From Laccaria trichodermophora (lineage: Eukaryota; Basidiomycota; Agaricomycetes; Agaricales; Hydnangiaceae), in the NCBI GenBank assembly GCA_018417955.1, contig JACTVC010000001.1:2790001-2854000 (forward strand): a stretch of DNA of 64,000 bases, written 5' to 3'. The position numbers and the translations under genes are program-made. This document shows, piece by piece, positions 4,855-39,947 of the stretch. The stretch's first letter is position 1. Each line of letters opens with the position of its first letter. The notes beneath the pieces are model-generated. The model had not been told where the DNA came from. It did no database searches and worked only from the letters and a program-made list of their open reading frames with translations.

Positions 4855-4862
4855 CATTTGTC
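4855..4862. repeat. Target-site duplication, left copy (CATTTGTC)
   Basis: Identical 8-mer to 31800-31807, abutting the outer edges of the 27 kb inverted-repeat element. Confidence 0.75.
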
Positions 4863-5265
4863 GCTTCAGTCACCCATTTTTGGGTACCTATGAGGTTATC
4901 CAATTCTTTGAATTAGGGAACCTTAGTGGTACCCCATTCCAGAGTGGTATGACCCTCATACCAGTTCCATCATACCATGGTATGGATGCCACATACCATT
5001 CCACCTCATACCATACCATACCATACCATACCATACCATACCATTCCATTCCATCTCATACCATACCATTTCACCTCATACAATACCATTTCACCTCATA
5101 CCATACCATACCATACCATACCATACCATCATTCCAAAGCTGTCACAGGGTCTCTGGGGTCTTTTTTCCAAAATATGAAAAATATTTCTGCTGGCTGCAA
5201 TTCTGGTCGGTTGGGCTCCATTTTTTGTGGGCTGGTTCATCACATTTCTTCTGACATTTGAGCTA
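4863..5265. repeat. Left terminal inverted repeat of the KDZ element
   Basis: It matches the reverse complement of about 31395-31799 with few differences, including the outer 110 bp, an internal CCATA array and a following unique segment up to about 5265. It starts with CTTCAGTCACCCA and contains the small dyad CCCATTTTTGGG close to the tip, a plausible transposase-binding site. Confidence 0.85.
4976..5128. repeat. CCATA pentamer array inside left TIR
   Basis: Imperfect CCATA pentamers interrupted by TTCCACCTCATA-type variants. The mirrored array at 31539-31672 reads TATGG. Open frames rich in TIPYH here are artefacts of the repeat. Confidence 0.9.
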
Positions 5266-5925
5266 CAATTGGTGGCTATCTTTATCTTTTGAAAACCAGC
5301 AGAAATCTCCCAAAATCTGCTCAAATAGCCTTTATCCCAGCTCTTCTAATATCCATCACAAGCCACCTACCATGCCTACTTATATCCAGGCAATGTCATG
5401 TGAGGGTGACAATCTATTTAGCCTTCAACTCTATTACATCCAATCACTTTATTCCAGAAACACATGTTTGTGCACTTTCTTGATTGTATAATAGTGTCAT
5501 ACATACCATGGAACACAAACATATCAGGTAACTGGCTTGCCTTTGGGTGCACCAACTAATCTTATACCTGCTCTGCACCTCAAGACATAACAACAGGGAA
5601 TTGCATTTCACATGTCAAGAAAAGTTCTGCACTATATGTGCATATTGCGAGGCTCAACTGTAATGTGACAGGATGTTTAAGGAACCCCTGCTCTGTACCT
5701 TAATAAATATCAACAGGGCTCTACACGTCAAGAACAGTACAACACCATATGGACATATTGCAAGGCTCAAGTTGGACTGTTACATGATAAATTGGTGTGT
5801 GGGCAGTGATAGGAGAAATGCAGGATCAATGATGATTCACCCATGCTAACCTGCTAACATCTTGTCATTACCTCTCAATAGTACACCCTGGCATATGCAC
5901 CTCCTACCCCAGACTATATCATATC
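5266..5925. other. Element interior, no gene
   Basis: Two diverged direct copies of a ~100-bp segment (CTGCTCTGCACCT.. near 5569 and CTGCTCTGTACCT.. near 5689, each followed by ATATTGC.AGGCTCAA) are visible; no coding signal. Confidence 0.5.
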
Positions 5926-5929
5926 AATG

Positions 5930-6480
5930 GAATGATCCCACAGACATGGAATGATCCCATACAATACCATTGGAATCATACCATAGCTATGGAATCATCC
6001 CATACCATACCATTGGAACAATACCACAGCCATGGAATGATACCATACCATACCATTGGAGTAATGCCATAGACCTGGAATGATACCATACCATACCATT
6101 GGAATAATCCCATAGTGATGGAATCATACCATACCATACCATTGGAATAATCCCATAGTGATGGAATCATACCATACCATACCATTGGGATAGTCCCATA
6201 GCAATGGAATCATACCACACCATAACATTGGGATAATCCCATAGCAATGGAATCATACCATACAATACCATTGGAATAATCCCATAGCAATGGAATCATA
6301 CCATACCATACCATTGGGAATCTGGGATAGTCCCATAGCAATGGAATCATACCATACAATACCATTGGAATAATCCCACAGCAATGTAATCATACCATAC
6401 CATACCATTGGGATAGTCCCATAGCAATGGAATCATACCATACAAATACCATTGGAATAATCCCACAGCAATGGACTACC
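5930..6480. repeat. Satellite of ~45-bp units, left copy
   Basis: About twelve units built from GGAATCATACCATACCA plus TTGGAATAATCCCATAG. The same satellite appears in reverse orientation at about 30250-30715, so the two blocks form part of the large inverted architecture of the element. Confidence 0.9.
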
Positions 6481-7761
6481 TGAAATACAAGTATGACAAA
6501 GCTAAGTCTACCAGAAACTGCTAAGTCTAAGTCCTTGACATACTTTATCTGCCAGGAATAAAGCATGCTATGTACGGTGTTGCCTTGTCTACCAGAACTA
6601 ATCTAAGTCTGGTGTCACCCTGTTTACCAGAAACACAGAGTAAAGATGATATGCGCGGTAAATATGTAAATGAGCTCCCCATCCAATGACAAACACTCAG
6701 AAACCATGGCCCTCACCAGGGTATTGTCTACATTGTGGATTACCTTCTGAGAATTGGTCTGAGTCATCGCCACTTTCCAAAGGCCCACGTGCCAACCTCT
6801 GAAGGCCATAACCAGGCAAGCCTTCGTGGCCTTGTCCGTAGTACCCACCAAAGTCATATGGATGAGCATATCCTCGATATTGAGGGTGGCCACCATGTCC
6901 TCTTCCACCAAAGCCAGACCCACCCAAGCCAGATGGCCCATATTGTTGTGGATGTTGGCCATTATTTGTGAATTGAGCAGGAACACAGAGATGTTGAAGA
7001 AGTATAAGTCCATCTTAGCTTGCACCCCAAGTAAACTACATATACCAAAAAACAAGTATAAGTCAGCCTTAGCCCTGTTATCGGCAAACAAAGTAGAAGG
7101 CCAGCAAATACTTATATTTACCTGAAATACAAGTATGACGAAGCAAAGTCTACCAGAAACCACTAAGTAAGAGTCCACAACATGCTCTATCTACCAGAAA
7201 CAAAGTATGCTATGTACAGTGTTGCCTTGTCTACCAGAACTATTCTAAGTCTGGTGTAACCCTGTTTACCAGAAACAAAGAATAAAGATGATATGCACAG
7301 TAAAGATGTAATTGAGCTCCCCATCCGATGACAAACACTCAGAAACCATGGCCCTCACTAGGGTATTGTCTATGTAGCGGATTACCCTCTGAGAATTGGT
7401 CAGAGTCATCACCACTTTCCAATGGCCCATGTCCCAACCTCTGATGGCCATAACCAGCAAAGCCTTCATGGCCTTGCCCATAGTACCCACTAAACTCATA
7501 TGGATGAGCATATGCTCGATATTGGGAGCGGCCACCATGTCCTCTTCCACCAAAGCCAGACGGCCCATATTGACATGGGTGTTGGCCTGAAAATTGAGGG
7601 GGAAGTCGGAGGTGTTGGTTGTCCATACGAACCGGATGGTGATAGTCTTCCATATACATGTTGTGTTTGTCTTCATCGTGCATGTTGACGTCGTTATAGT
7701 ATTGGGCCTGAGGAGGTATGAACCGAAAGCCCCCAGTGTGGTATGAGGCAGCATCGTCTTG
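6478..7761 (-). repeat. 642-bp tandem duplication of a coding 3' end
   Basis: Matching points are offset by 642 bp (TACCTGAAATACAAGTATGA at 6478 and 7120; AAACCATGGCCCTCAC at 6701 and 7343). Each copy contains the same minus-strand Gly/Tyr/His-rich coding end (GFGGRGHGG, HPY..YYGQGHEG, ESGDDSDQFSEGNP, EGHGF-stop). The downstream copy (6697-6927) is shorter and more diverged, so it looks like a duplicated, non-used terminal exon. Confidence 0.85.
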
Positions 7762-10700
7762 GGCAGTAGGTCGATGCAAAGTCCCACAGGGATTATGCAC
7801 TGGCTCTGAGCCACTGTCGATATGTTCAGGGCATGGGTGCAGAGGCCTGGTATGTGCATTCATAGTTCAGGAGACCTCTGGGCCACTGTTGTCAGGAGCA
7901 CCAACCTGATGCTGATATGCAACACGGGGGTCTTGTGCCTTCTGTTGGCGAGGACCTGAACCTGGAACTATGAGTGACTTTCATCCTGTTTAGCAAGAGG
8001 GTGGTCCATACCATGGTAATTGCCTGCTTGCAGTTGGACCGAACCTGCTGCTCCATGCAATGTTTCCTTGCAGCACATTTGCTTAGCAGGAGGGGAGGCT
8101 GTTGGGGAGTTCACTGCAGGGCGAGTGTCGTCAGCCATTTCTTCATCGGAAGGGCCATCATCAATGGCATATGCCACTTTTCCTCAAGGTTTGGGCTCAT
8201 GTGCCTGCTGTGGCAACTGATCTGCCGCTTGGTGTGATGTTCCCTGGTGGCGAACCAGCTTGGTCAGAGGCAACACTTTTAGCGAGTTTACTGGAGGTCA
8301 CGACTCGTTGACACTATCGTCATCCAAAGGGGGGTCCTCCACATATATCACTTTGGCTTGAGGTTTGGGCTCCTCACGTAACTTGCATTTGGTTGTCTTC
8401 TTCTTGGTAACCTTCAACGTGTTCTCTTCGATCGCCTGACTGCGTGCTCTCGCTTGAAGGAGAGGCAGCACATCCAGCCCACCATCTTTTTGTCATGCAG
8501 CATTGTGGACTTTGGGCTGAGAGTTTCTGATGCAGGCCAAGACCTTCACCTCCCTCGACTCCATACCTCCCATGATGATAGGTATATCCAGCCATGCTTT
8601 GGTCCCTTCATCCAGAGACTTATAATCTAGAGCCATTCTGTCAGATGATGTTGTGTGATGTAAGTGGAACTTACCATCAGACCATGCTACAATATGAGGC
8701 ATCAAATCCTTCAAGTCATCCTTGCTCATCATGTACGAGAACATGAGGTTGATTCCAGGTGAACTGATGTCATTGACAGACCAGCCTTTCGCACCAGGGA
8801 AAGGCTCCTTGCAGGGCCATTGCTCGAGGACCATTTCCGCATCACGGCAATGGGTTAAAAAATTTGCCCACACTGAAGAGCCCGCTGCTACCTCTGGTCC
8901 TGCCCATTCCACTTCACCCCAGTGAGCCTCAAGCCAAACCATGGAAACAGAAGACAACATACCCATTTGGAACCTCAACACCTGGGGGACACATCTTCAA
9001 GTGCGATCTCCTGATATTTCTGTGGTGCAGCACTCCCAATACAATGCAGGCACAGTGGTGATTGGAAGGTTAAGATTGGGGTCAAAGGGGTTGGCTACAG
9101 CTTTCACGGACTTAGAAATTTTTCTCGCCAGTTTTGACGATTTTTTCTGTCTGCCTGGGATGGTAGGAGACTTTGGTATCGACACCTCCTTAATATGCGC
9201 AAGGATGGCAACATCCTGACCCAGCAATTTCCCCAAGTCTACAGAATTTGGTGTGATCATCTTCAAATCCATTCCCCTTCAATGTTAATGTCAATAAATA
9301 TGATTTTTTAAGCAAGTCAAGGTGGGAACTTACCTAAGGAGCATTGTTAAATGATGTGGCATCTGTTTGATATCAGCTTGACAGTGCACAATGAGGTCCT
9401 GAAGGTTTGTATTGCCTGTAACGACCATAGTGGCTTGGTTGGCGACCAGATCCTGCAGAATGATGATTCCAATCATGTTGACATCAGCACGTCCCAGGGC
9501 TGTTGCCTAAAAATCAGGAATCATTAAAAGGCAGCTCGAGAAAAAAGGCTGAAGACTTACCAAGTCTTGAACTTGCTTCAGCGCTGTTTTTGTTATCTTA
9601 AAATCTTGCCTGTCCATCTCAGGCCTGAGCTCGACCAACTCTGACACCATCTCCTCCACGAAATTATCCATCTGATTGGCCGACAACTTCTCCACAATAT
9701 TGTTGTACATGGCAGCAGCCTGAGTAACCCATGAGCCTTCACCTGTATACAACATCAGACCCTGGGACGAACAAGGAAATATAAGATGTGTATATGCTTA
9801 CTTTTTCTGGGATTGTAAGGCTGGTAACGCAAGTACATCTGCCAAATATCCCATCACGATGCTTCCCGAGAAAGAGACACATTGAACCCTCCTTTCTGCA
9901 GCACAGACTCAGGTGTGTGACCCATGTTCTTGCAATGCATGACAATCATTTCCACAAGTTCCATCACCAGCTTAGTCTCATGAGCCATGTATGGGCCACG
10001 CTTCATTGATTGTGGCAGATCGTCTCGCCTTTTGCCCAGTGCCTTTGTGCTTGTGACAGGCCATGCAGTGGGAAATTCAGATGCACCATCCGCGTCCACC
10101 TCCAAACCCTCACCGTCTGCTGAAGGCCTTTGTGCTGGTGGCTTGCTCTTCACTAGGTGACACAGTTTTTGTGCATACTCTTGAGAAGCACCTTCTGTGT
10201 CTGCCTCCAAACCCTCATCAGAAGCACCTTCCACCACCGCATCTGAACCCTCTCCGTCTGCTGAAGGCTGTTGCACTGGTGGCTTGCTCTTCACAAGCCA
10301 ACATAGTTTTTCTGCAAAGTTTTCGCCTGGGCCTGAGCCCCCATTGTCCTTTGACTTCCTTGCAACTCGTTTACGTTGTCGACCCCATGAAACCTGGTCC
10401 TCTCCCAATTTGTTGCTGCAATTGGCACCCGAAGGCCCCTTCCGACCCTTTGTCTTGCTCATTTGACACCTGTCTTGCTCATCCTCTTCCTCCATCCTCC
10501 TCTCATCATCAGCCTCCTCTTCTGTGGTATCCATCTCATCATGGCCCCATCCCCGGTTTTTGCGAGCCCATTCATGTTGACATGCCTTTGCCTCCTCGGT
10601 TTCACTGAAGTCACTACCTGACCTGCAAGAACTCGATCTATAGCCCTTTTCGCCATCTTGATCTGGTTCAGGCATTGACTCTGCTTGGTTGTTGTCCTCC

Positions 10701-11148
10701 TTTGGGCCGCCTGACTCTTTCTCCCTGCCTGACTCTACTTCAACAGCTTCCTGCCCAGACTCCTTTGTGCCGGCAGACTCATTGTCTAGCTCATCAGCTC
10801 TTTCCTGGGCAATTATCTCAGCCACCTCCCACCATGCCTCCACCTCAACAAGATTGTGTAACGCCCGAGGCTTCTCTGTGGTATATCCTGGGGGGAGTTG
10901 CTCCCATTGATGACTGGCGCGATTATACCAACAAATGTATGGGGCATACATGCCCAATCACCTGGCCCAGCCAACCCAATCCTTGATCGATAACCTACAT
11001 AACCCAGGTCCTCGATAGCTCTGCCAATACAGCAGAAATAGTTGGTCCCTGGATGTGGAACAGCTGATGCTGAAGGGAGGGGAAGCCTGTCATTTGACGG
11101 CATTGTGGAATCAAATTCCTCATCACTGGACGCTGGGTCCGGGGTCAA
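7339..11148 (-). pseudogene. Element-borne gene of unknown function, decayed
   Basis: Minus-strand coding pieces run in order from 11148: N-terminal segment (to about 10900), a long acidic/Ser-rich segment (10957-9854), 9755-9570, 9495-9350, 9272-8493, about 8177-7968 and 7863-7339. GT-AG introns are visible, for example after ..LKQVQDL near 9560 and after ..HHLTMLL near 9335. The acidic segment contains two copies of a LVKSKPP-QPSADGEG motif. Two TGA stops interrupt otherwise continuous frames: 9856-9854 (before WDIWQMYLRYQPYNPRK) and 8999-8997 (before RCVPQVLRFQMG). The C terminus is Gly/Tyr-rich and is duplicated downstream. I recognise no domain; it resembles hypothetical genes carried by mushroom transposons. 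The frame change near 10930 may be an intron or a frameshift. Confidence 0.55.
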
Positions 11149-11949
11149 GGGCTCGCAAAAGTTCAGTGCAGGGTCAATAACATTGAGGGGGGGGATGTCC
11201 AGCTGGTTATGTATTTTGTAGAGGCCCCTTGAATGAGGAGTGGGCCCTGTTGTGCAGGAGAGTGGTGAAGATGGAAGAAAACCAGAAGAATCATTGCTGT
11301 AGAATGCATTGTCAGTGCCATGTCACTATGCGTAATAAAGGAAACATATGTCAGAATTAGAGTCGATTTGATCACGAAAGTGGTGTCCACTGATGGGGAA
11401 ACTCTTGATGAGGCAGATCTAGCAGAAATAGCAGTACTTTACACTCCCACTGCTTGTCTGACAGACTCCGATGGAATTTCATCGGACCCTGCCATTTCCG
11501 ATGGACTCAGTGGACTGTCTGTTGGAAGTCTGTTGGAGTCCGTTGGAAATGGTTGGATTCCGCTGCTAGTCCAGGCAAAGTCCAGTGAAAGTCTGCTCAA
11601 GCCACTTAGAAGCAAGAAGTGGTTGGACTGGCTGGATTTTGTGTCTGTTGGACGTCCGCCGGACTTCCGCTGGATTTCCAATGGACAGAGGCAGAAACCA
11701 GTAATACTTGCTAAGTCATCAGTTTGCTGGACTTCCGCTGGACTTCCGACGGACTTCCGATGGACTTCTAAGCAAAAAAGGCACAACTTCCAACAGATTT
11801 TCAGTGTCCAGTCTGCAATTCTTATAAGTAAATCTAAACAAGTCAGGCCCTGGTCAGACCTTATGCTAAATTCCTTAAGACATGGAGGTTTAAAAAACAA
11901 AGTATATTTTATAACTACATAAATTCATTTTACTACATTCTATGTTACA

Positions 11950-12860
11950 GAGAAGGGGGAGGGAGTGGGGGGGGGTGGTGATCAGAAAGGGAGGGGGGAG
12001 GGACAAAAAGTGAGGGGGAAGGGACAAAAAGTGAGGGGGGAGGAACAGAAAGGGAGGGGGGAGAAACAGAAAGGGAGGGGGGAGGGAATGGTAAGCAGCA
12101 AGGGAGGAGGAGGGAGTGGGGAGTGGTGAGCAGCAAGGGAGGAGGAGGGAGTAAGGGAGGAGGAGGGAGTGGGGAGTAGCAAGAGAGGAGGAGGGAGTGG
12201 GGAGCAGCAAGGGAGGAGGAGGGAGGGAGTGGGGAGCACCAAGGGAGAGGAGGGAGTGGTGAGTAATGGAGGGGGGAGGGGATGGTGGGCATTGACTGAT
12301 AGAGGGGGAGGGAATGGTGGTGCTGGGCCCTCATCCCCATTCGTGCGTGGTCATTGGCGCGCATCGTTGACACATTATTGCGTCGCGTTGTGTCACCGTC
12401 CTCGCGTTGCGTGTTTTGTCGTCATCCTCGCGTGTTGTGTCATCGTCGTCGTGTCGTCGTCGTCGTCATGTCGTCGTCGTCGTGTCGTCGTCCGTGTCGT
12501 GTCGCCGTTTCGCGTCGTTGTTGCCTTTCATTCTCCTTGGGCATTGTCATCGCCTCGTTGTTGTCTCGTCGGCAGGCGTTGTTGACACGTCATCGTGTCG
12601 TCGTTGTCGTTGTGTCGTTGTGTTGTCCACGTCGCGCGTCGTTGACACGTCGTTGTGTCGTTGTCGTCGCGTCGTTGTGTTGTTTGTGTCGCGTGTTGTT
12701 GACACGTCGTCGTGTCGTCACGCCGTCCGCGTTGCGTGTTGTTGACACGTCATTGTGTCATATCGTCGTGGGTCGGTGGGCTGTCGTGGCCGTTTGTGGG
12801 TGCTGGTGGGCATGGTGGGCCGTCAGTGCGTGTCGTCGTCTGTTGGTGGTCAGATGAGCT
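11950..12860. repeat. Polypurine (GAGGGGG) block followed by CGT-trinucleotide block
   Basis: The left half is almost pure purine on the plus strand, with tandem GGGAGGAGGGAGTGGGGAG units. The right half is CGT/CGTTG triplets with spaced GTTGACACGTC units. The same two-part module recurs at 41.04-42.2 kb, inverted at 43.3-44.4 kb, and at 49.5-50.35 kb. Confidence 0.8.
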
Positions 12861-13089
12861 AGGTTGGGGTGGGATGGTTAGGGTGGGTCTGGGCACTCAG
12901 TTTGCACAGACGTTGTCGCCATCGGACGATGCTGGATTGTCGTCGCCGCTGGGGATGGATGATGGTTGAGGAAGAGAGATGTGGATCATTGATGATGGGA
13001 AAATCACGTGTCGGCGTTTGCCGATGACCATTCTAGGAAGGCAGTCAAATAGTAGGTATGTATAATGTAAAACACCTATCTATATTAAA

Positions 13090-13180
13090 GCTGCCTTAGT
13101 CCAGCTGGTTCAGTGTTGTGTTGAATATTCTTCAGGGCCTGAGGTCCAGTGTTCAATTCCATGATGTTGCATTTTTTTAT
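13090..13180 (+). ncRNA. Possible tRNA-derived SINE or pol III unit
   Basis: TAGTCCAGCTGG at 13097-13108 fits the A-box consensus (TRGYNNARNNGG), GTTCAATTCC at 13151-13160 fits the B-box core (GWTCRANNC), and a T7 run at 13172-13178 could terminate pol III. The spacing suits a tRNA-type internal promoter. The tRNA fold is poor (T-stem and acceptor do not pair well), so a functional tRNA is unlikely. Confidence 0.35.
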
Positions 13181-13490
13181 ATTATATAATTATAATAAGA
13201 ACAGTCTGTTGGAATTCCGTTGGACTTCTGTTGGACTTCTGTTGGATTTGTCCACTGGAATTCTGTTGGTGCTTGCCTGTCATTTCCAGTGGACTGGCTG
13301 CTAGTTTGCTGTTAGTCCATCGGAAGTCCGTCAGAAAAGTCCAACGGACTTAGAGGTCCGACCAGAAATGCTCGGAAAAGCTTCAGACATTCACCGGAAA
13401 ATTGCTGTAGTTGCAAAGCAGAAAAAATGTCTGTTCTGAATACCCTCAGTCTGACGGAGTCCGGCCGGAGTCCGCTCGGAAAAGCAGTGG

Positions 13491-16400
13491 CAGCGTAAAG
13501 ACCTCAGAAATAGGTGAACTGAGCAGGAGGAAAGGTCCAACATTCCGACATACATTAGCATAGCCTGGAGACCCAAAGGCAATACCGAAGTAGCAGAGGC
13601 AGAGGCATTTGAAGCCCTAGCATTCAGGTTTCTGCTGTAAAAGATGTCTTGGGCAGCGTCCGGTATGTCATCCTTGCATCTGCAGACATTACAATTCAGA
13701 CAAAGACGGTGGGGTCGAATCTGACGTCACTAACTGATTATCGCGAGAAACAAGGTTCTGGGTTGGTGTGGTATCTGGGTCATCCACAGGCATAACCCTG
13801 TAGGCTTGTCAGCCAAATAAAGATGAAAAAAGCTCAGCGAACAAGGAGTTAACACTGGTGAGACCCAAGTGAAACAACAAAGAGTCAAATTTCACAAAGG
13901 CAAGGATACTCCACGACAAGGAGTCAAACGGTATATCCCCTGGGAGAGATCCATGCACTCTTTTTGGTGTCTGTAGGCACAGATTGTTTTGGGGATATTG
14001 GTTTCTGCAGTGTTGTGATGTTCAGATGTACTGAGAGGACCCAAAGTCTTCGTGACTGAGCTGAGTCCATGTTGGTTGACCATGGTGTCTGCTGTGGTGG
14101 AGGATGGTTCATCCTGAGTGGGTTGGGCCTCAACCACAGCCTTGATGCTAGCGTCGGTGTCCATGACGCTACAGCACACATTGAGATTTTGACAAGGTGG
14201 CCCAGAACATGCACATACCTTTCATTGTCTGTAGTCACAGCTGACTTCTCAGGCTCCGAATTCCACACAGGCGCTCTCTTGACAGCTTTGGAATTTTTTC
14301 TGATGGCAGACATTAGTGAGGATCCTTGAATCCAATGTATCAACTTACTTTTTGGAATGATGAGGGTGCTTGACTGCTGGAGTCGATTTGGTGTTGACGA
14401 TGGCTTCGATGCTGGCATCGGTTTTTTTCTTGGAGCAGGTAGGAAGACCGATGGCCTGGGAGGCTACAGTGTTGGAAACTGCATTGCTGCTAGCTTCAAC
14501 GGTGGTTGCACTATAGGGAAGATTGAGAAAAGAATGTGCACAAAATTAACCATGAATCACCTCTCAGCCTCCTTGGTTGGGGCAGACTTTCCAGCTCCCT
14601 TCAGATTTTTTTGAGCGATGTGGCAAACTGTGGAGGCAGCATACTCACTCTGGTGCTTGCCTGGCCTTGGCCTACAGGGGGCAAAAGGACAACTGGTACC
14701 AATTTACGTGCACAAAGCTGATGAGGTTCAGACATTTGAGTTGTAGCAGTTGTAAACCTGTTTATGGTTCAAAGTTTGAATTTTTTCTGGGTAGTTTGGG
14801 TGAGAAAAGTGTTCCACTGTTTCTTAAATATAATCCATATTCTTACTCAGTCCACTCTAGGCCAGGTACAGACTAGCCCAATCAGGATTTCCCTAATGTT
14901 GTTGTGAGTTGTGGGTCTCAGGGTAAATTAACCCCATTGATCCACCCAATTACTATTGACCTGCAGAGTTAGCCAATTGACCACAAACTGGCTGAATGAA
15001 CAAATCACCTTCGAGAGACAGGCTTCACATTGAGAGGTTGACGTGTGAGGGTGTCGGGCCACAGGCTACCCATGGTGTGCAACGAATTCGTGGCATTTAA
15101 GGAATTCGTGGCGTCTAACCTGGCAGCAACCAGGGAAGCCCCCAGCACTAGTACGTTACCCAATTACATAAGTTTTTTCTATTATTTTTCAACCCAACGT
15201 ACCAAGTGTAAGGTCAGCTCACACATTCCAAGATGATGGCTTATGCTGAAGTTGATTGACGATCGGAATTGACTGCATGATCGTTTCAACAGAGCTATTA
15301 AGTATTATTTGGTGGTTGTTTTGTTTCAATCCAATGTACCCACCCATGAAATAGCTAATGTTAGCGTGCATGCGCACCATATCCCGGTTTTGGCCAGTTG
15401 AACAAACCAGATTAATGGTAGGAATAGACTGCATAATTATTTCAATTAACCTATGGACCATTCTGTCATGAAGCCTACATACCAACCCATGAAATAGCTC
15501 AGGCTGACCTGCATGCGGACCATATCCCGGTCTTCGCCAATTAAACAGACCATATTAACAGTAGGAATAGACTGTGTGATTGCTTCAACTAACCTATGAA
15601 TGTTTTTGTTATCAAGCCTACATACCAAGCAGCGAAAGATCTTAGAAGTTTCGATGACTGAACCATGCAAGCGAGGTGACCGATGTAGTTACTATTTGAA
15701 CAAATGAGCTCAGCGTTGTGGATTGAGAATGACAAAGCGAGGATTGCAGCGACAAGGAGTCAAACCACTCAAGTGAAAGGCCAACAGGGAGTCAAAGCCT
15801 GATATACGCAGCATGGACAACAAGGAGTCAAATCCTGCTTGGCCTGATGGGGAACTGGACAAAGAAAGGGCACTTACATTGTTGAGCCAACATGCAGACT
15901 CTGTGATTGTAGAGGAGATTGAACCAACATCGATACTTTTTGAAGGAATGAGCATGGCATCGTCTATTTCGTATTACGATCCAAGGAGTTGACTCGCTAA
16001 TGCCAGGTTTGAACCATCCAAACGGAGAGACCAACGTCGAGGCTTGCAAAGTATGGATCACGGTCCCATGTAGAAACTATTCCAAGGAATGAGCATGGCG
16101 TCGTGGTATTCAAATTACGAGGCAGTGGATTGACTCACGATTTCAATGTGGTGCGATTGTTGCACCCATATCCCTACTCTGCATGAGCGAAAGAGGCACT
16201 GCCCTAACCCAGCTGAACATCTGTTTGGAACCAATGGGCATGGACATCGTCGACATGGATATCAGAAGTGAGACTAACAGTGACAATGAGTCAAACTGCG
16301 AAAGGCCAACAAGGAGTCAAGGCCTAAAACGCAGCGAGGACGACAAGGAGTCAAGTCCCGCTGGTACAGAAGGGGTCAAGGAGGGGGGAAAAACAACTTA

Positions 16401-16650: not shown

Positions 16651-16803
16651 TTATCATAATAACAAGGCAACTGCCTATAGATCAATGTGTATAAGTCCAC
16701 AGTCTTTATGATAGGGAATCATTCCTGTTACCATGTCTTTTCATTATCATAAAGCCAGCACTTTTTTCATTAAGTGTAGGCAGGGCTTTATAGCTCGATC
16801 TCA

Positions 16804-20645: not shown

Positions 20646-20798
20646 TGAGATCGAGCTATAAAGCCCTGCCTACACTTAATGAAAAAAGTGCTGGCTTTAT
20701 GATAATGAAAAGACATGGTAACAGGAATGATTCCCTATCATAAAGACTGTGGACTTATACACATTGATCTATAGGCAGTTGCCTTGTTATTATGATAA

Positions 20799-22700: not shown

Positions 22701-22718
22701 CAATTGAGTTCAATACTC

Positions 22719-25700
22719 ATGCCTTTCACAGCAATGTCCCCCTCCAACACCAAACCTTACTATAAGGAATACTTCCATGAAGGGGATCGTGATTATGAGG
22801 CCACTGATGCTGTATGCTGGGATGTGATGGAATGTCAGGTTCGGTCAGGGGAGGTCATGAGTGAAGCAGGTATCAACATGTACATGGAGCACCCAGACAG
22901 CAAAGATCTGAGCCATTGGTGGGTAATCACAACCCCCAATGCTGGGTACATTCCCACTGCACCCATCGGCATCCGAACGATTCAAGTGAGAGCGGACAGA
23001 CATTTTGGGTTGGACGACCACACTCAACATCCGCAGATGTACATCAGGGGTTTCAAGTACATTTGCTGCATTCCTAAGTGTGAGCACTTGCGACGCATGC
23101 TATGGTGGACTCCTACTATGAACGATTGTCCCCCTATCCCCAATGGCCCCTTTGCCATCACAATACACGTCCTCAAACTGCACCTGTTGCATGGATACAA
23201 AAAGCTTCATGACAAGTATGTTGGCCTCATAGGCCAATGTGCTGAGCACTCTCCGCTGGCTGGCCTCCTTGTGATGACTATGTGTCAATGTCTCAATAAA
23301 CTGAGATCTTTCGGAATGATGTACAAAGAGATCGTTCTGGCAGTTGCAGAGTTTCAGCATGCAGTACTCAATATACACAGGTGGATTGAATACATCAATG
23401 TTTACCAGCCCCATCTATGTCCTGGTCCCAATGGCATGGAGAAGCATGAATCAAATCAGAAACTTATGGGCACCTTTATGGAGAAAGTCACTGTTGTGCA
23501 ACAACTTCACATGATGGGCATTCCGGTTTGGCTGATTCAACCATCATTTCGTATTTTGCCAATGATGAATGTCAACATGTATTCCCCCCAGCGACATGAT
23601 GACGATATCGTTTTGTGGCAGTTTGGGAAACCCTGACCCCTATCCCATTCTGGTTGTTGGCCCATCATCTGCGGAACTCTACCGGTGGATGCAGCGCATA
23701 GGCTGCAGGATCATGGACCTTCAGGACATTATGGTGATAGGCTGTCAGGATTTCGTTGAGGGAAAAGTCAAGCTGGGTGCGGTTTGAGAGTCTTGTAGGT
23801 GAAAGCTTCTTCTATTTGGACCAGTAGCTAACATCTTCCTTTTGTAGACTCACTTCCTGTGCTGTCTGTTGCCCAATTGTCGGCTGCAGGGGCAGTGGGG
23901 CCCATTGGTAAGAATGACTGTTATCATGTTGATGTTCTTATTGCTAACTTGGAGTGTATTTAGCTGGTTCATCTTCTAGGATTGAGGGACAGTATGCCTC
24001 AGCCACTTCAACCACTCAGCAAGGTAAGGTCGTGCTTTCACTTTAAGTGCTGAGTTTACTAAAACGTGTTTGCAGTTTTACAATCCGTGAGATCCCAGCA
24101 GCAGTCCCAGCCACGATCTCAGCTGCAGTCTCAGCCCCCCTCGATGCCAGTTATTCCTCCATCTCTGGGGCTTGCACCAACATTGAATGAGGGTCCTGGG
24201 CCCTCCAAGTGCCAACGCCTAGTGGGTGAAGAAACCCCAGACAGCCCATTCATGCCGGACCCTATGCCACAATGGGCGGACACTTTGCATATGATCGATT
24301 CGGATCGCAGCCGAGTAATCAAACATCCAGAACACATCCAGAACATTGGCTTCAAATACCCTAAGCCAGAAATTTTCTTGAACTCCAAAAACCAGGCTTT
24401 GTATACTGTGATGTGGTTGGCAACTTGAGCATATCATGCTTACACACTGTAGAAGAACAGAAGTTCAACACAGGGAGATGGAAATTGGTTGTCGAACTCG
24501 AGTACAAAGGAGAAGGGAGAAAGGAGAATGTCAATGGACAAAGGGATAGACCAAAAGAGTACGTAGCATTGATAAAACCTAAAAAGCTTAAGACGTGTGG
24601 CATGAGCACTTCAGTGCGTGCTTAGAAAAAGTGGTGTGAGTCTTCCAACGCGTTTGATGTGTTTCGACGAAAGAGAATGCCGCGCTTTGGTGCACAAGCG
24701 AAATTCTTCTTGAAGGGTCCAGATGAAAGTCGAAGCCAACAAGTTCAAGAGGGAGGGAATGCATTGTGTGTAATATGACTTAAAATCTTAAAGAATCTTC
24801 GTGAAGGGGAAGTCAAGGGAAGGGGAAAAAAAAGGTACTCCATTCAACAGGTGGGAGGACACCTTTTATACACAAATGATAATCACAAGGCATTTGACAT
24901 GTTCTCTTGTGTTGCCTGTCCCAAAAGGTTCTAATTTTAGAAAAAGAAGAAAGGTATCAAAAAAATAAAAATAAACAATAAAACTTATGCCTCCCGCATG
25001 ATTCCTCAACCAAATCTTTGAGCTGGGGATTGCTCAGGGAATTGAACGACGCTGGGGGAGCTTATTTACGTGCACGTCGCCGCCCTCAACACAAGCGCCC
25101 CAGTCGTCAACAACTCTACCCTACCGTCCAGCCCTTGGAAAAGGCATCGGTCTCATGAGAAAATGTTAGAAGTAATGAAATGAAATAAAATGAAAAATAT
25201 ACGAAAGGTGTGCATACAAAAATGAATCCTTGAATCCAAAATCCTTCAAGTTGACACAAGGAAATCGTGATCAAAGAAGTAGCCAGAGATGATGTCATAT
25301 GAGGGTACCGTTTCCTGTAAGTTGCCGGATATTGCGTCATTCGTTTGGGACTTCGATAGCACACGTGATGAGCTCATGTAGACGTTGAGATGAATATAAA
25401 GAAAAACTTCAAAAGCCTAAAAAAATCTTAAAAGAAAAAAGAAAAATCAAAGTGTATAAAAAACAACTAATAAACAGAAGTGCCATGAATGGGTCATTCT
25501 GCACTTCCACAATGCTCGGCACTGGGACCTCGCTCCCTCCTCCCATCAGCTCCCAGCAGTGGCACAACTTCCTCATCAAGATTCTGCTGTTCTTGCACCC
25601 TGATAGTATTGATGTCGTGGCACAGCTGGATGAACCCACGACTTCCACTCCCCCACCACAACCAGACAGGAAGGGGAAACAGAGTGCCAAGGGGCCAGGG

Positions 25701-26359
25701 AAGGGGGCAAATCTCGCACCAAGAAATCAAACTCTTATCTTGATCAGATCCTGCTCAAACATGGCCAGGTTGATAGGGTGGTTTTTTATGATACGACGAT
25801 TCAACTGGGTACCGCAGCAGAGCTGGAGAACACATTGATGCTGGAAATCATGAAGGAGGTACTCTGGGAACTCTGTCACATGAGCTTCTGATTTGAGCTT
25901 GTGAGTCTTGATGCCATCACCGCAAATGCGATGTACCAAGCTCATGAAGGGTTAACACAGGAGGAGGCATTGGCCGCTCGTATCCAGGAAGTTCTTTGGG
26001 TATTTCCCATGTCTGGTGAGGTGGTGGGACCTTTCATCATCAACGAGATCCTGAATTGCGATTTAGGTTTGACAGCAGCGGATCTGCTGGAATGGAACCA
26101 TTATCTGGTGGCACTGGGGCATTTGATGTCTTTGTGGAAGGGTTGCCTGGATTCTATCACCAAAGTGAGCTCGGGGCCATTGGCAAAGCATGTATGTCAT
26201 CTGGAGGAGGCGTGTGCAGTGTTCTATTGCCAGAGTTTCTTTGACAACTTTGGCTGTGCACCTGTCATACTGTGCTGTCTTCCATCTCAATCCCTTGCAC
26301 ATTCCCAGCCCGTTACCTTCATGGACTCTGTGTCTTCTGTGCAGCCACCATCATCTTAA
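22719..26359 (+). pseudogene. Element-borne gene of unknown function, decayed and interrupted
   Basis: The likely start is MPFTAMSPSNTKPYYKEY at 22719 (or 22734). The frame is open to about 23600, then shifts (..NMYSPQRHDDD to GNPDPYPILVVGPSS), continues to about 23780, runs through small exons to 24428, and resumes after a 1.0 kb insertion at about 25473-26359. The Gln/Ser/Pro-rich middle precedes a segment ending ..FYCQSFFDNFGCAPVI. This layout matches a hypothetical-protein family common in Agaricomycete transposon-rich regions; I know no function. Lesions: TGA at 24426, TAG at 24450, TGA at 25889 and a frameshift near 25700 before SRTKKSNSYLDQIL. It lies just upstream of the KDZ transposase on the same strand, which supports element cargo. 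Confidence 0.6.
24465..25472. mobile_element. ~1.0 kb insertion inside the element-borne gene
   Basis: The 9-mer AACAGAAGT occurs at 24456-24464 and again at 25473-25481. Removing one copy and the DNA between restores a continuous reading frame (..KNRS then AMNGSF). The insert has no coding capacity, is A-rich near its 3' end and shows no clear terminal repeats, so its class is unknown (solo LTR, SINE-like and MITE remain possible). Confidence 0.5.
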
Positions 26360-26430
26360 TTTTTTTGAACAATAATAGCACACATACATCTTTGCATCAT
26401 GTTGCCTCGTTTTTTTCTTGTCATTGGTAC

Positions 26431-29400
26431 ATGATGTATCAATATATCTTTTTTGGGACTGTATTGCTCCCAGGGATTTGGGGGTTTGATGAGACCTTGG
26501 TAAGGCACTTTTCTCTTCTTTCCCCTCATCTTCAAGCTTGGTGCTTTGCAACACTTGATGTCTTTCAGAAAGAGTCGTTACTTGGGCAAGGCTGGACTTG
26601 CTATAGGGTCTCCCTCTGTGAAAAAGAAGTCTTTGGTAAATCTTGGGTGTCAACTGATGATGACAGTGTGTCATGTTGTCCTTATGGGCTACCTGGTGTT
26701 CAGATCTTGCCTAGGCAGGACTTGACAACTCCTCTGGGTTCCTTTTTTCGGATACCCTTGCCTACTGCTGCTGATTTGCATGATGATGCTGCTGCTGCTG
26801 CTGTTGACACTGATGATAATGGGACTAACTGGGATAATTATGACTCTGAGGATTCTGAGGGGGTTTCACCTAGTGAAGGTCTTCATCCCTTGGTATTTCC
26901 TGCTGAGCAAGGCTCTCCAAGTAAAAAGAAAGACAAGAAGATAACTTTGTGGAAAAACTGGGCTTTGAAACTGATTCCAGAGCTTCTGGATCCCTATCTG
27001 AACTTGTTGAGAGAGTCAGAGAACTTAAAAAATATAGATAGGAGGTTACCTCACTGTTCTTGCAATGGAAGAGGGCATAAAATGAAGGTTATTGCAGTGT
27101 TTTTTGAGAGTAAGTTATTCTTGCTGCCTTAGAATTGATTTGCCATGGCTAATCTGTTGCAACTGCCACTTAGAGCTCACATCAGTGGAAGTGTGTTCTT
27201 GCTCTGCATGTCTACAGCTCTTGGCTATGGGGCTGTTTCCAGCCTCACCACTTCAACCTACATTGGCAGTGGATCTAAATATGCTTGACTATGTGAATGA
27301 GCTTTTTGTTTGCTCGCCACCAAACACTACTGCATGGTGTGACTCTCTAGAGGCATTTCTTGGTTCCCATAGCTATAAGCTTGAGAGTAGAGATGCAATA
27401 AGGCATCACTTTGGAAATGCTCTGCAGTGGTATGGGAATTTGATTGCTCAAAAAGAGCTATTAATCTCTGGGATCATAAATGAGGGTCATACTGGAATGG
27501 AGGGTCAGGATGATCTTTCTTCTGAATCTAAGGAATTAGATGAAGAAAGTTATGGGCCACCTCTGACATCTAGTCCTGCTCCTTCTGCAGATGAGGCTAG
27601 TGATGGTTCTGAGGCTAGCGATGGTTCTGAGGCTAGTGATGGTTCTCCTGATGTTCAATATAGTATGAATGCTACATCTGGTATTCATAGACCAAGTCTA
27701 TATTTATGGCAGCATTGCCCACTTTGTTTTGGTGGAGATAAACCACATGATGACAACTTTCTGTAGGTGTTATTTTATATTCTTATGTTCACATCTCATT
27801 TTTATGTTGTCAGTGTGGATGTTATTGTGTGCATTGATGCCTGCTTTACTCACAAAAGAAGAAATCCAGCAAAAGGTGGGGCAAAGGGTCCTGAAAATCT
27901 CCATCCAGAAACTGTCTTTGTGTCAGACAAGAATGTTGCTGAGATGAAAGCCTTTGTTGAGACTACTCATCCTGTAAAATCAAAGTCAAAGGAAAAGACA
28001 AAGGAGGGCTCTGATGGTCATGGTGTAGAAGATTCCTATGAGCCTGGAATGAAAGTCCCAGTTTCAGCTTTGGAAGGATGCTTGGCCTCATTTGTGGCTG
28101 CAGATGAAAGAAGGACAAAATCCAGTACATAGTTCTTTGCAGACACAGGATATATGGCTATGCTCTGTCATCATGACCATGTGCTCTGGATTGTGAATAT
28201 GACCACTGCTGGAGAACAACAATATTATGCTTTAGCATTGATCAAGGAGCTTTTTTTGAATTTGCCTTTGTCAATGACTGTGGGGATACTCTATGATATT
28301 GGTTGTCAGTTAGAGAGAAGTTGCAAGATATGGGGTTTTCTGGAGGAATTTATGGCACACATTATTTTTGCACTGGCAGTGTTTCATGCATATGGTCACC
28401 AGTGGCCATGCCAACTAATCTACCACCCCCATAAATGTGAAGGTTTTGGACTCTCTGATGGAGAGGGCTGTGAACACTTCTGGAGTTCCATAAAGTTACT
28501 AATTCCATCAATGCATGTGGCAGGGGTAAGTCATCATGTGTCATCCTTGAAAAAAAAATTAATGATTGTCTAAAATAGTTCTACCATCGTCTGTTCACAA
28601 TTGATACTCAGGTGAAACACCTAGAGAAAAAGTCATTTAAGGTGATGGGAAAATGGCTTCAACATAAATGGCTGCATTTCCTAGAAAAGAAGATTGGGGC
28701 TGAGGAAATTCTCCAAGAACTTGGTCTAGAAATGCCTCTTCTTGAGAAAGAATGGAAAGACCAGGTTGTGGCACAGACTAAGCCCTTGGCAAGACAGTCA
28801 AAGAATATTGGGAACAATGCTGTCAAAGAGATAATGGCTTTGTATACTGCAAGGAATGCATTTGCGGGTGAGTTGGGAGAGCTTGATCAAAAGCTAATTT
28901 CTGGTGACTATGGAGATGATATGTTGGTGGAGGATGTCCTGGCAGCACGTCTGGCTGTAGTGAAGAAGCAAAAGGCTATAGAGGATACCATTTAAAACAA
29001 AGAAGAAAAAGCTTGGTGTGAGGGATCAAGAGAATTTGAAGGATCTGATGGGCAATAAATTTCTTCAGTTAAAACTCAATGCCAGAGCCCTCAAGCAAAG
29101 GCTTAGAGATCAATTGCGCAATCGAAAGTTTGAGTTGGAGAGATTAGAAAGAGCATACCGGAATACAACTTCCAATGGTAAGCTTCTATTTAGGATAAAA
29201 TTATGGTGGCTGGCTAATATATACTTTGATAGAGACGAAATTGCATTCACATGTGCAGAAACAGGTCAATCAGCAGCAACCAACAATTGCTAGATTGGCA
29301 AAAAAATACAATGACATGTGCTATGATATGACAAAGCAGATAGAAGAAAAGAAAGCTCCTCAGAAAGCAATAGCTCCAGTCCCAATTAACCAGGACACTC

Positions 29401-30105
29401 TGTTCTCTTTGGATGTGGATGATGACATCTGGCAGGATATAGGCTTGGATGAGCATGAAAGTGAGGTGATCCCAGGTTGGCTTGGAGATGAGAAAGTCTG
29501 TGAAGGAATCAAAGCAATGCTTACTGTGAAAAGATGCATGGAGGAGATCACTAGAATCAAAAGAGAGCGGACTGCTTTACAAGAGTGGTCTAAGGAGGAG
29601 TGGCAAGCAATAAATGCAGCCATTGATATATGTGGTAAGTTTTCTGGATATTGCTTTTTTGGTGGAATCTAATAGGTATTGTATTGTTGTAGAGGATGAG
29701 GATATCAAACACCAGTTGCTCATCAGAAAGGTGCAACATCTGAGTTTATGTGCACAATGGAGGGAAGAGGTGTCTCTCATACCAGGTGCATACCATATGT
29801 TGCATGGATGGGGACCAAGTGAAGCAGAAATGGAGAATGCATTGGAAGAATTGTCACAGGAACATGTTGATGATGAGGGAAGTGATGATGAGCAGTTAAA
29901 CTGCACATATGATATTGAAGAAGAGGACAATAACAATGTTATTGAAGAAACAGAAGTCTTGGCAGCATCAGATGCATACAGAGCAGTGGATAATGGGTTG
30001 TTATTTGGGAGATGGGATTTGGAGAACCTGTGGGAGGATGTGGAAGATGGAGAAGAAAGTGTCTTTGAAGCTACAGCCTCACGCAAACAGCCAAGGCAAA
30101 AGTAG
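26431..30105 (+). pseudogene. KDZ-family transposase
   Basis: Exons, after an uncertain N terminus: to 27109, 27174-27762, 27814-28525, 28579-29177, 29233-29634, 29693-30105; all introns are GT-AG, 51-64 nt, and keep the frame. The product has the KDZ hallmarks: a CxC cysteine cluster (CSCNGRGHK..VEVCSCSACLQLL), PPNTTAWCDSLEAFLG, YLWQHCPLCFGG, then the RNase H-like core with VIVCIDACFTHKRR, FFADTGYMAMLCHHDHVLW, YDIGCQLERS, HAYGHQWPCQLIYHP and LSDGEGCEHFWSS, followed by the helical C-terminal region (ALKQRLRDQLRNRKFELERL, DVDDDIWQDIGLDE). Two lesions make it inactive as it stands: TAG at 28130-28132 where Gln is usual (CAG to TAG), and a one-base frameshift near 28990. An acidic region with a DGSEAS triplication (27600-27645) is specific to this copy. 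Plausible source of mobility for the 27 kb element before decay. Confidence 0.9.
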
Positions 30106-30249
30106 CATGAGATAGAAGAGTTGTGATGGTATTGGATTGAAAGCTTGTAATACTATGACTTTGGACTTTTATGGCAGAGTAGAGTGATGGAGAGGGTGGT
30201 AAGGTAAGTGTTCTATGTGATATACAAGATTGAAAATGTTATGGTAGAG

Positions 30250-30715
30250 GTATATTGAAAGTTTTGAATGGTATGATGGTATGATTCCATATTCCATTTC
30301 CATGGTATGGTATGATTGATGGTATGATCACAAGTCAATCATATGGTATGAATGGTATGATGTATGGTATGATTCCATTTGTATGGTATGATCCCATCTC
30401 TATCGTATTATTGCAATGGTCTGGTATGGTATGATTCCATCTCCATGGTATTATTGGAATGGAATGATATGGTATGATTCCATCTCTATGGTATTATTCC
30501 AACGGTATGGTATGGTATGATTCCATCTCTATGGTATTATTCCAATGGTATGGCATGGTATGATTCCATCTCCATGGTATTATTGGAATGGAATGGTATG
30601 GAATGATTCCATCAGTATGGTATCATTTCAATGGTATGGCATGGTATGATTCCATATCTATGGTATTATTCCAACAGTATGGTATGGTATGATTCCAACT
30701 CTATGTTATATTCCT
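30250..30715. repeat. Satellite of ~45-bp units, right copy
   Basis: GGTATGGTATGATTCCATCTCTATGGTATTATTCCA-type units (written here in parts: GGTATGGTATGATTCCAT plus CTCTATGGTATTATTCCA). It is the reverse-orientation partner of 5930-6480 and starts about 145 bp after the transposase stop codon. Confidence 0.9.
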
Positions 30716-31394
30716 ATAGTATTTAAAAATCAATTGTGAAGTGGTTTGTTCTATATGCATGTTGGAGGAATGGCCAATAGGTGGCAAATCATAGAGCTGG
30801 TAGGTAGGTAGTATTAGGCACATACTCAAAAAGGAACAAGGGCAAAGGACAACACAATACAATAAGGGCAAAGGACAACACAATACAATAGAGCTGAGTA
30901 AGTTAAAGAGTCAATTACTGTTGGAGAACTTCCACATAGACCAAAGAGTGGAAGAACTGTGGGGGGTCTTCAACAGCCATCCATCATTGATTGTGTGACT
31001 GTTGTATGACCACATATGCACATGTTGATTGAGAAACAACTGGATGGCTGTCCATTCAATCTGCATGTGATTATTTTCATTGTTCTCCAACATGACTATA
31101 AGTCCAGTCAGCAAGTGGTCAGTGACATTATCATCATCAATGTCACCCTGTTGAAAAAATTGATCACAGAGAAAGACATTTGTTAACAAGCTTGCCTAGA
31201 GTGGTAATTTTGGCTAAAGTTGATCCCTTGGCAACCAATGAAGTCTTGCATTGTTGTTGACTGAAATTAATTGATCTGTAAAGATATAAGATTTCAAGTG
31301 GCTTGTGATGGATTATTTCAGGTTTGGATGGCTAAAACCTGGGATAAAGCCTAATGAAGCTGATTGTTTAGATCAAGTTCAACCTATAGTCTCC
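30716..31394. other. Element interior, no gene
   Basis: Nothing recognisable. A short direct repeat of GGGCAAAGGACAACACAATA occurs near 30840 and 30866. It is not obviously homologous to the corresponding left segment 5266-5925. Confidence 0.5.
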
Positions 31395-31799
31395 ATTTGT
31401 AGCTGAAAATTTCAGAAGAAATGGGAAGAACCAGCCCACAAAAAATGGAGCCCAACCAACCAGAATTGCAGCCAGCATAAATATTTTTCATATTTTGGAA
31501 AAAGGACCCCAGAGACCCTGTGACAGCTTTGGAATGATGGTATGGTATGGTATGGTATGGTATGGTATGGTATGGTATGAGGTGATTTGGTATGGTATGA
31601 GGTGGAATGGTATGGTATGAGATGGAATGAAATGGTATGGTATGGTATGGTATGAGGTGGAATGGTATGTGGCATCCATACCATGGTATGATGGAATTGG
31701 TATGAGGGTCATACCACTCTGGAATGGGGTACCACTAAGGTTCCCTATTTCAAAGAATTGGATAACCTCATAGATACCCAAAAATGGGTGACTGAAGTG
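31395..31799. repeat. Right terminal inverted repeat of the KDZ element
   Basis: Mirror of 4863-5265, with a CCATA (here TATGG) array at about 31539-31672 and the tip ending GGGTGACTGAAGTG. It is one base longer at the very end than the left tip. Confidence 0.85.
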
Positions 31800-32098
31800 C
31801 ATTTGTCAAGGCTGTTCATCCCAAAAAAAAGGTGAAGGTGACTGAGTCATCTGATGTGGCATCTTCAGCCCAGGAGACTGGTGCAGTGCCTTCAGTTCAG
31901 GAACAGCAAACTATGCCATCTGTAACTTCTTGCCACAGGGTTATTATTAGTGACGAAGAAGATCAGGAGGAAGCTTCTCACCATGGTCAAACCCTGGATC
32001 CCAACAACAATGTGATCATGATATCAGATGATGAAGAGATCACTGCTGAAAAGGAATTGGGTAAGCAACAAGATGTTGATGAGACTGGAAACTTACTG
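31800..32098 (+). pseudogene. Fragment of the gene into which the KDZ element inserted
   Basis: Directly after the right target duplication one frame is open and reads ..VKAVHPKKKVKVTESSDV, then a Ser/Gln-rich and acidic stretch (VIISDEEDQEEA, NVIMISDDEE). It resembles a low-complexity linker of a nuclear protein or transposase. I cannot name the gene, and its other half is not evident left of 4855. It is cut off by the LTR that starts at 32099. Confidence 0.35.
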
Positions 32099-39830: not shown

Positions 39831-39947
39831 CCTCTTCTCCTCTTCTCCTCTCCCTGCCTTCCTCCCTCTTTCTCTTGACTCTTCATTGTAAATTTATCGA
39901 CAATGAATTCCATTCTCCTCTGACAAATTCTGTTCACCAATGTCATA

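What the first reader, a model, noticed from the sequence alone, without database searches (positions are those of the whole stretch)
4855..31807. A 27 kb KDZ transposon bounded by an exact 8-bp duplication
Seen: ~400-bp inverted termini at 4863 and 31799, the same 8-mer CATTTGTC outside each end, a KDZ transposase between them, and satellites arranged as mirror images inside both ends. Known: KDZ transposases are a mushroom-expanded class. Inference: the whole 27 kb, with two unknown genes and nested elements, moved as a unit; this would be an unusually large DNA transposon for a fungus.
Basis: partly seen in the sequence, partly recalled or inferred. Interest (0 to 1): 0.9.

Follow-up and report, generated by a model that had tools for sequence, protein, structure and literature searches.

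The report
Large three-gene mushroom jumping gene
A 27,000-letter stretch of a Laccaria-like mushroom genome is a dead copy of a very large jumping gene that carries two unexplained partner genes beside its transposase, with near-identical younger relatives, pre-insertion sites and stripped-down palindromic offspring elsewhere in the same genome.

Summary
Window 4862-31799 (26,938 bp) is a KDZ transposon inserted at one site: six paralogous loci elsewhere in the genome run unbroken across the junction, each with one close variant of the target word. The duplication is most likely 7 bp (CATTTGT), not 8, because 39 of 40 distinct ends begin CACTTC, so the eighth letter looks like element DNA. 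At least seven other loci carry this family. The young copies C63 (20,780 bp) and C10 (22,272 bp) are 98-99.7% identical over about 18 kb yet have different duplications, so about 20 kb moves as a unit. The window copy is longer by three nested insertions (about 7.3 kb). The two 'unknown genes' are a fixed part of the element: gene AB, divergent from D, with D ahead of the KDZ gene, is kept in 15 of 15 loci compared, and both genes show purifying selection between copies. The window copy is dead (CpG loss, broken frames, a stop in the KDZ domain). The same ends also flank a 630-bp MITE and near-perfect 5-16 kb palindromes. Large KDZ transposons are known (about 11 kb in Cryptococcus); this is a larger three-gene variant with long inverted ends.

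The parts
4862..31799 (+). whole element, 26,938 bp, KDZ gene on + strand near the right end
   Evidence: tips and duplication; six empty paralogous sites
4855..4861 (+). left copy of the 7-bp target-site duplication CATTTGT
31800..31806 (+). right copy of the 7-bp target-site duplication CATTTGT
4862..5262 (+). left terminal inverted repeat (tip CGCTTCAG), with CATAC 5-bp satellite 4992-5129
31397..31799 (-). right terminal inverted repeat (tip CACTTCAG), with 5-bp satellite 31537-31669
5916..6475 (+). left subterminal 43-bp minisatellite
30381..30722 (-). right subterminal 43-bp minisatellite, inverted relative to the left one (about 83%)
7093..14700 (-). remains of gene AB (large protein of unknown function, interrupted by the insertion at 11432-13505); the upper end is approximate
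   Evidence: collinear with C63/C10/C17; frames and stops; Laccaria proteins P0002 and P0010
22700..26359 (+). remains of gene D (in C63 a hand-predicted 797-aa protein of 4 exons; unknown function), interrupted by the insertion at 24446-25513; the start is approximate
26490..30105 (+). remains of the KDZ transposase gene: CxC1-like cysteine cluster about 27180-27375, KDZ domain 27818-28555, in-frame stop at 28130-28132; the start is approximate
11432..13505 (.). nested 2,074-bp element (tips CAGTACTTTAC...), 8-bp duplication AGAAATAG at 11424-11431 and 13506-13513
   Evidence: absent at this place in C63 and C17; CpG o/e 0.90
16634..20818 (.). nested palindromic element (4,185 bp; arms 99.4% over 1.93 kb), duplication ACTATTG at 16627-16633 and 20819-20825
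   Evidence: absent at this place in C17, C18 and C63
24446..25513 (.). nested 1,068-bp insertion inside gene D, no clear duplication seen
   Evidence: CpG o/e 0.79

Best explanation
The interval is a dead copy of a large cut-and-paste DNA transposon of the KDZ superfamily in a Laccaria genome. SHOWN: its two ends belong to one insertion at one site, with the word CATTTGT duplicated. It has long inverted ends (about 400 bp here, about 720 bp in young copies), each carrying a 5-bp satellite, with an inverted 43-bp satellite further in. Its genes stand in a fixed order: AB (leftward), D (rightward) and the KDZ transposase (rightward). SHOWN: sister copies are nearly identical over about 18 kb at different sites; AB, D and the transposase show purifying selection between copies; the three-gene order is kept in related families. 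SHOWN: this copy has less than half the CpG o/e of C63, stops and broken frames, and three nested insertions that C63 and C17 lack at those places. INFERRED: the transposase binds the ends and their satellites, cuts both and joins them to a 7-bp staggered target, perhaps preferring G-N7-C. AB and D are partner proteins that the element needs, for example for end binding, for handling a long transposon, or for countering silencing. The lost CpGs reflect cytosine methylation of the silenced copy. The MITE and palindromic elements with the same ends are mobilised in trans by intact copies.
For: Six paralogous empty sites, 75-92% identical, run without a gap across the junction with one variant of the target word. 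40 ends with distinct flanks share the tip, and 8 of 11 copies with both ends in hand have exact 7-bp duplications, all different. C63 and C10: 98.2-99.7% identity over about 18 kb, different duplications. dN/dS between C63 and C17/C18: A 0.40/0.52, B 0.36/0.39, D 0.20-0.23, transposase pieces 0.12-0.40. Order AB-D-KDZ in 15 of 15 loci where all three were listed; D has a KDZ hit downstream on the same strand within 10 kb at 34 of 53 merged loci, about 0.005 expected per locus. CpG decay: in the AB region 164 CpG-to-TpG/CpA changes from C63 to the window against 11 the other way; CpG o/e 0.36 against 0.88. CxC1 and KDZ Pfam hits over cut-off in C63.
Against: None of the six empty sites holds the exact word CATTTGT; they hold CGTTTGT or TGTTTGT. 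Three of 11 copies do not show an exact 7-bp duplication, and one of them (C67, 400 bp) fits 8 bp at 7 of 8 letters. The window copy differs from C63 for about 0.6-0.7 kb inside each inverted end, so ends may have been exchanged between copies. C17 and C18 show stops and gaps in the B frame, C18 also one stop each in two transposase pieces, and these two copies are close relatives, so the dN/dS values are not two independent tests. No activity was observed; methylation is inferred from CpG loss only. AB and D have no recognised domain, and the one AlphaFold model of a D homologue was too poor to use (mean pLDDT 42.7).
Confidence: 0.9

Rival explanations
1. Two independent insertions (for example two MITE-like ends) happen to bracket a host region that contains a KDZ gene.
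For: Single tips and a 630-bp end-to-end MITE with the same ends do exist in the genome.
Against: The flanks are contiguous in six paralogous loci, and collinear copies of the interior lie between the same ends at other sites.
Confidence: 0.02
2. AB and D are captured host genes (passenger cargo) without a role in transposition; only the ends and the KDZ gene matter.
For: Neither has a recognised domain; AB relatives at E <= 0.001 in the one search made were Laccaria proteins and unnamed ones from other sources.
Against: Both show purifying selection between copies. D is linked to KDZ down to 22-34% identity within the genome, and an L. bicolor gene model even joins D and KDZ (P0011). The order is fixed in 15 of 15 loci. 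Conserved linkage does not by itself prove a role in transposition.
Confidence: 0.15
3. The true duplication is 8 bp, as reported for Zisupton and a Dileera family.
For: The window 8-mer matches exactly. Seven of the eight copies with a 7-bp match also match an eighth letter in one register (C63 only in the other), and the 400-bp copy at C67:1340086-1340481 shows 7 of 8 letters beside full CACTTC tips. Zisupton makes 8-bp duplications (PMC12730594).
Against: C63 and C10 are nearly the same element in the same orientation but would need different registers. The first C of the tip is present at all 40 distinct ends, including the window's left end, so it is probably element DNA.
Confidence: 0.2
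4. The whole 27 kb, with nested elements already inside, inserted at this site.
For: The nested pieces lie inside the ends. The nested palindrome has CpG o/e 0.16, as low as its host, so composition does not show it to be younger.
Against: The nested pieces at 11432-13505 and 24446-25513 keep CpG o/e 0.90 and 0.79 while the host element has 0.15-0.47. None of the three is present at these places in C63 or C17, the copies compared at base level.
Confidence: 0.08

Closest known systems
KDZ1/KDZ2/KDZ3 transposons of Cryptococcus neoformans (PMC12810828, passages read)
   Same: KDZ plus CxC1 transposase, long inverted ends (139-241 bp), mobile large TIR elements
   Different: about 9.2-11 kb there against about 20.8 kb here; duplications 8 bp (KDZ1) or 4-8 bp (KDZ2 and KDZ3) there against probably 7 bp here; whether they carry AB or D relatives was not tested
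Kyakuja elements of Laccaria (Kyakuja-1_LB and -2_LB; PMC12730594, sections read)
   Same: KDZ superfamily, 5'-CA..TG-3' ends, 7-bp duplication
   Different: those have no inverted ends and carry TET/JBP; here long inverted ends, no TET/JBP in the intervals checked, and the KDZ domain falls outside the TET-linked group of this genome (100/100 support)
Zisupton and Dileera (PMC12730594, sections read)
   Same: KDZ transposase; Zisupton is described there as having TIRs
   Different: 8-bp duplications reported there; no reference protein was at hand for a tree, so membership is undecided
Starships (ascomycete giant elements; PMC12134995, abstract in search listing only)
   Same: large fungal elements with genes besides the mobility enzyme
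   Different: classified by a tyrosine recombinase; no such hit in the frames scanned here
Foldback-type and palindromic elements (recalled)
   Same: long near-identical inverted arms in the non-autonomous relatives
   Different: here they carry the ends of a KDZ family

Membership tests
KDZ superfamily | KDZ transposase domain over the curated cut-off | tested here: met
   C63 201.9 bits against cut-off 26.6; window piece 147.8 bits
KDZ superfamily | N-terminal CxC cysteine cluster | tested here: met
   CxC1 30.4 bits against 26.9 in C63; just below cut-off in the window copy, 25.6
DNA transposon with TIRs | inverted ends plus target duplication plus empty site | tested here: met
Kyakuja | 7-bp duplication and CA..TG ends | tested here: met
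   8 of 11 copies with both ends have exact 7-bp duplications; 39 of 40 distinct ends begin CACTTC
Kyakuja | absence of inverted ends (as reported for the two L. bicolor families) | tested here: not met
   401-403 bp inverted ends, 94.9% identical
Kyakuja | transposase groups with TET-linked KDZ of the same genome | tested here: not met
   tree of 30 rows: separated with 100/100 support, though the tool warned that some long branches may be misplaced; 'TET-linked = Kyakuja' rests on PMC12730594
Zisupton | 8-bp duplication | tested here: inconclusive
   7 bp preferred in 8 of 11 copies, one copy fits 8 bp at 7 of 8 letters
Zisupton | transposase clade with fish Zisupton | not tested
   no labelled reference sequence in hand
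TET/JBP-carrying KDZ | TET/JBP gene inside the element | tested here: not met
   76 Tet_JBP matches genome-wide, none in the intervals of the window copy, C17, C63, C10 or the fetched part of C18
Starship | tyrosine recombinase captain gene | tested here: not met
   no such Pfam hit among the element frames scanned

The most novel reading that the evidence does not exclude
KDZ transposons of mushrooms include a lineage whose transposition machine is three proteins (KDZ plus AB plus D), and whose non-autonomous offspring are made or kept as near-perfect palindromes, by end-to-end copying or by gene conversion between the arms during or after transposition.
Probability: 0.2. Interest if true: 0.75.

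Novelty: new variant of a known kind. Interest (0 to 1): 0.5.

Why it matters
KDZ elements are abundant in mushrooms, but full structures (ends, duplication, gene set) are described for few of them in the papers I could read. This family offers young copies with open frames, dead copies, empty sites, a MITE and palindromic derivatives in one genome. That makes it possible to ask directly what AB and D do, and how a 20-kb cut-and-paste element stays mobile and escapes silencing. D relatives in Coprinopsis, Ephemerocybe, Hypsizygus and Pisolithus suggest that the partner gene is widespread in Agaricomycetes.

Tried and rejected
Two separate insertions: rejected by empty sites. TET/JBP cargo: not found in the intervals checked. 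Protein function of AB and D: no Pfam hits (the only weak hit among the frames was DUF7746 at E 0.0086, below its cut-off), no PDB sequence relative for D (best E 0.52) or for the KDZ piece (best E 0.54), and an AlphaFold model of a Coprinopsis D homologue with mean pLDDT 42.7, so no fold search was made. Kyakuja membership by ends alone: weakened by the tree. C30 (16.2 kb) looked like a second large autonomous copy, but only its inverted ends match; its middle holds frames that look to me like a reverse transcriptase and a tyrosine recombinase (my reading of the letters, not a domain hit: the one short piece scanned gave nothing). The chain listing for C34b missed its palindrome because of a filter in my script; a direct comparison gave 7 mismatches over 5,031 positions. 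In the first count of duplications I overlooked the 400-bp copy in C67; one search adds it. Paper searches on size and structure listed nothing that I recognised as this family; one search returned nothing.
Full report
WHAT IS THERE. 4862-5262 and the complement of 31397-31799 align with 371 matches, 20 mismatches and 22 gap columns; the best local score is 560 bits, against at most 21.4 for 100 random inverted 400-bp pairs of the window. CATTTGTC occurs on the + strand only at 4855 and 31800. Inverted 5-bp and 43-bp satellites lie inside both ends.

ONE INSERTION. The two flanks joined without the element were searched in the window's own genome (59 Mb, 77 contigs). Of 9 matches, 6 run across the junction (C50 at 92%; two in C5, two in C14 and one in C19 at 75-83%), 2 are the flanks themselves and 1 is a short partial match. 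At base level the six show no gap at the junction and one variant of the target word each: CGTTTGT in C50 and C19, TGTTTGT in the others; none has the exact CATTTGT. The target was itself a repeated sequence, which supplies the empty-site control inside one genome. No second strain was available.

SEVEN RATHER THAN EIGHT. In the loci that I held, 43 tips were found; 40 have distinct flanks, and 39 of these 40 begin CACTTC. The exception is the window's left end, CGCTTC. The C next to the target word is therefore probably element DNA, and the duplication is CATTTGT, 4855-4861 and 31800-31806. Eleven copies have both tips in hand. Eight show exact 7-bp duplications, all different (window, C17, C63, C10, C30, C23, C34a, C77). 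The 630-bp MITE at C67 matches 6 bp in that register and 8 bp in another, in a T-run. C34b has none, because its flanks mirror each other for at least 18 bp. A 400-bp copy at C67:1340086-1340481 does not fit 7 bp but fits 8 bp at 7 of 8 letters, which speaks against the 7-bp reading. An 8-bp reading would need two nearly identical copies in the same orientation, C63 and C10, to use different registers. Among the eight exact copies, the letters just outside lean to G on the left and C on the right.

THE FAMILY. Tip to tip, C63 is 20,780 bp and C10 22,272 bp (the scripts count 4 bp less per copy). They match at 98.2%, 99.7% and 99.6% over three long blocks, about 18 kb in all, and at 99.4-99.9% between their terminal 720 bp, with different duplications. 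The window copy matches C63 and C10 collinearly in blocks at 77-93%, C17 (25,343 bp) likewise, and C18 (at least 29.5 kb, other end not reached) over most of its length. Further copies lie in C3, C77 and at the start of C1. C6 and C28 share the C63 flanks and are probably the same site in broken contigs. The window copy is longer because of three nested pieces, 11432-13505, 16634-20818 and 24446-25513, which C63 and C17 lack at these places.

GENES. In C63 the element encodes AB on the left-going strand, and D (797 aa, four exons, spliced by hand) and the KDZ transposase on the right-going strand. That A and B are one gene is inferred from an L. bicolor protein spanning both (P0010). Pfam finds CxC1 (30.4 bits, cut-off 26.9) and KDZ (201.9 bits, cut-off 26.6) in C63, CxC2 and CxC3 below their cut-offs, and nothing in AB or D. 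Between C63 and C17/C18, dN/dS is 0.40/0.52 for A (353 codons in C18), 0.36/0.39 for B, 0.20-0.23 for the two halves of D and 0.12-0.40 for the transposase pieces; codon pairs with a stop were dropped first. A small 115-codon frame gives 0.52-0.53. The B frame of C17 and C18 shows 3 stops each, and two transposase pieces of C18 one each; the KDZ-side ends of C17 and C18 are 99.2% alike, so these are not independent tests. In the genome, 60 matches to the first half of D fall into 53 loci after merging. In all 15 loci where I found AB, D and KDZ listed together, AB diverges from D and D precedes KDZ. AB hits without both partners in the lists (in C14, C38, C34 and near the start of C1) were not counted. 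D relatives occur in Laccaria bicolor, Coprinopsis, Ephemerocybe, Hypsizygus and Pisolithus. The L. bicolor gene model LACBIDRAFT_335525 joins D and KDZ.

DECAY. Against C63, the window copy shows 164 CpG-to-TpG/CpA changes in the AB region and 11 in the opposite sense. Its CpG o/e is 0.36 there against 0.88 in C63, 0.40 against 0.96 in the D block, and 0.15 against 0.43 in the transposase block. Both flanks of the window copy are CpG-poor too (0.20 and 0.16). Two of the nested pieces keep o/e 0.90 and 0.79 and so look younger; the nested palindrome has 0.16 and cannot be dated this way. The KDZ frame has an in-frame stop at 28130-28132, the AB and D frames hold stops and gaps, and D is split over two frames. 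Copies without these stops exist elsewhere. Methylation as the cause is inferred.

NON-AUTONOMOUS OFFSPRING. The same ends flank the MITE and long palindromes: C23 (arms 99.4% over 2.86 kb), C77 (99.3%, 2.65 kb), C34a (99.8%, 1.97 kb), C30 (98.3%, 2.5 kb) and C34b (7 mismatches over 5,031 positions). Over the first 720 bp the two arms of one element are 99.6-100% identical, while different palindromic elements are 96.1-99.3% identical; block by block, C23 and C77 differ by 2-8%. That points to recent birth or to gene conversion between arms. Full-length copies vary: the two ends of C63 and of C10 are 99.3-99.6% alike, those of C17 only 87.4% and of the window copy 77.6% over the same 720 bp. 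The nested palindrome in the window shares its inner part with these elements but has other tips.

PLACE AMONG KNOWN ELEMENTS. From PMC12730594 (introduction, first part of the results, passages and figure legends read): Zisupton and the Dileera example make 8-bp duplications; two Laccaria Kyakuja families make 7-bp duplications, have CA..TG ends and no inverted ends, and carry TET/JBP. The present element has CA..TG and probably 7 bp, but long inverted ends, no TET/JBP in the intervals checked, and a KDZ domain separated with 100/100 support from the TET-linked KDZ of this genome (30 rows; the tool warned of long branches). Its subgroup stays open. From PMC12810828 (passages): Cryptococcus KDZ1 is about 11 kb with 241-bp ends and 8-bp duplications; KDZ2 and KDZ3 are about 9-10 kb with 4-8 bp. 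From PMC9674265 (passage): the largest element of a Marasmius oreades library is about 42 kb, so size alone is not unprecedented. PMC3411680 on L. bicolor TEs (passages) counts 23 TIR members, and its text does not contain 'Zisupton' or 'palindrom'. Passages of four more papers mention KDZ or Kyakuja without this element. I saw no description of this family in the listings of searches; Repbase was not available.

ORGANISM.

Noticed in passing
C34:2502345-2507375 (L031): A palindrome over all 5,031 positions compared, with 7 mismatches to its own reverse complement. Its flanks mirror each other for at least 18 bp, so there is no direct duplication: an inverted duplication or an assembly artefact.
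   Followed up: partly
C30:442806-458968 (L026, L027): A 16.2-kb copy with the same ends and 2.5-kb inverted arms, whose middle seems to hold a reverse transcriptase and tyrosine-recombinase-like (DIRS-type) element; my reading of the frames, not a domain hit.
   Followed up: partly
window 11432-13505 and C10 (L023, L024): A second small element family (tips CAGTACTTTAC, 8-bp duplications AGAAATAG and CAGCTGGG) inserted into the AB gene of two copies at different places.
   Followed up: partly
C18 (L032-L034): The C18 copy seems to carry an approximately 11.8-kb insertion bounded by the tip sequence of the window's nested palindrome.
   Followed up: no
window 1004-1909: A 99-bp tandem repeat in about 9 copies (94% matches), a multiple of three and ankyrin-like to the eye, left of the element.
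   Followed up: no
window 38763-46681: A second pair of inverted arms (513 nt, 96%, 6.9 kb apart), perhaps another large TIR element in the same window.
   Followed up: no
genome-wide: 76 Tet_JBP matches, many within a few kb of a KDZ hit of the other KDZ group, as described for Kyakuja.
   Followed up: partly
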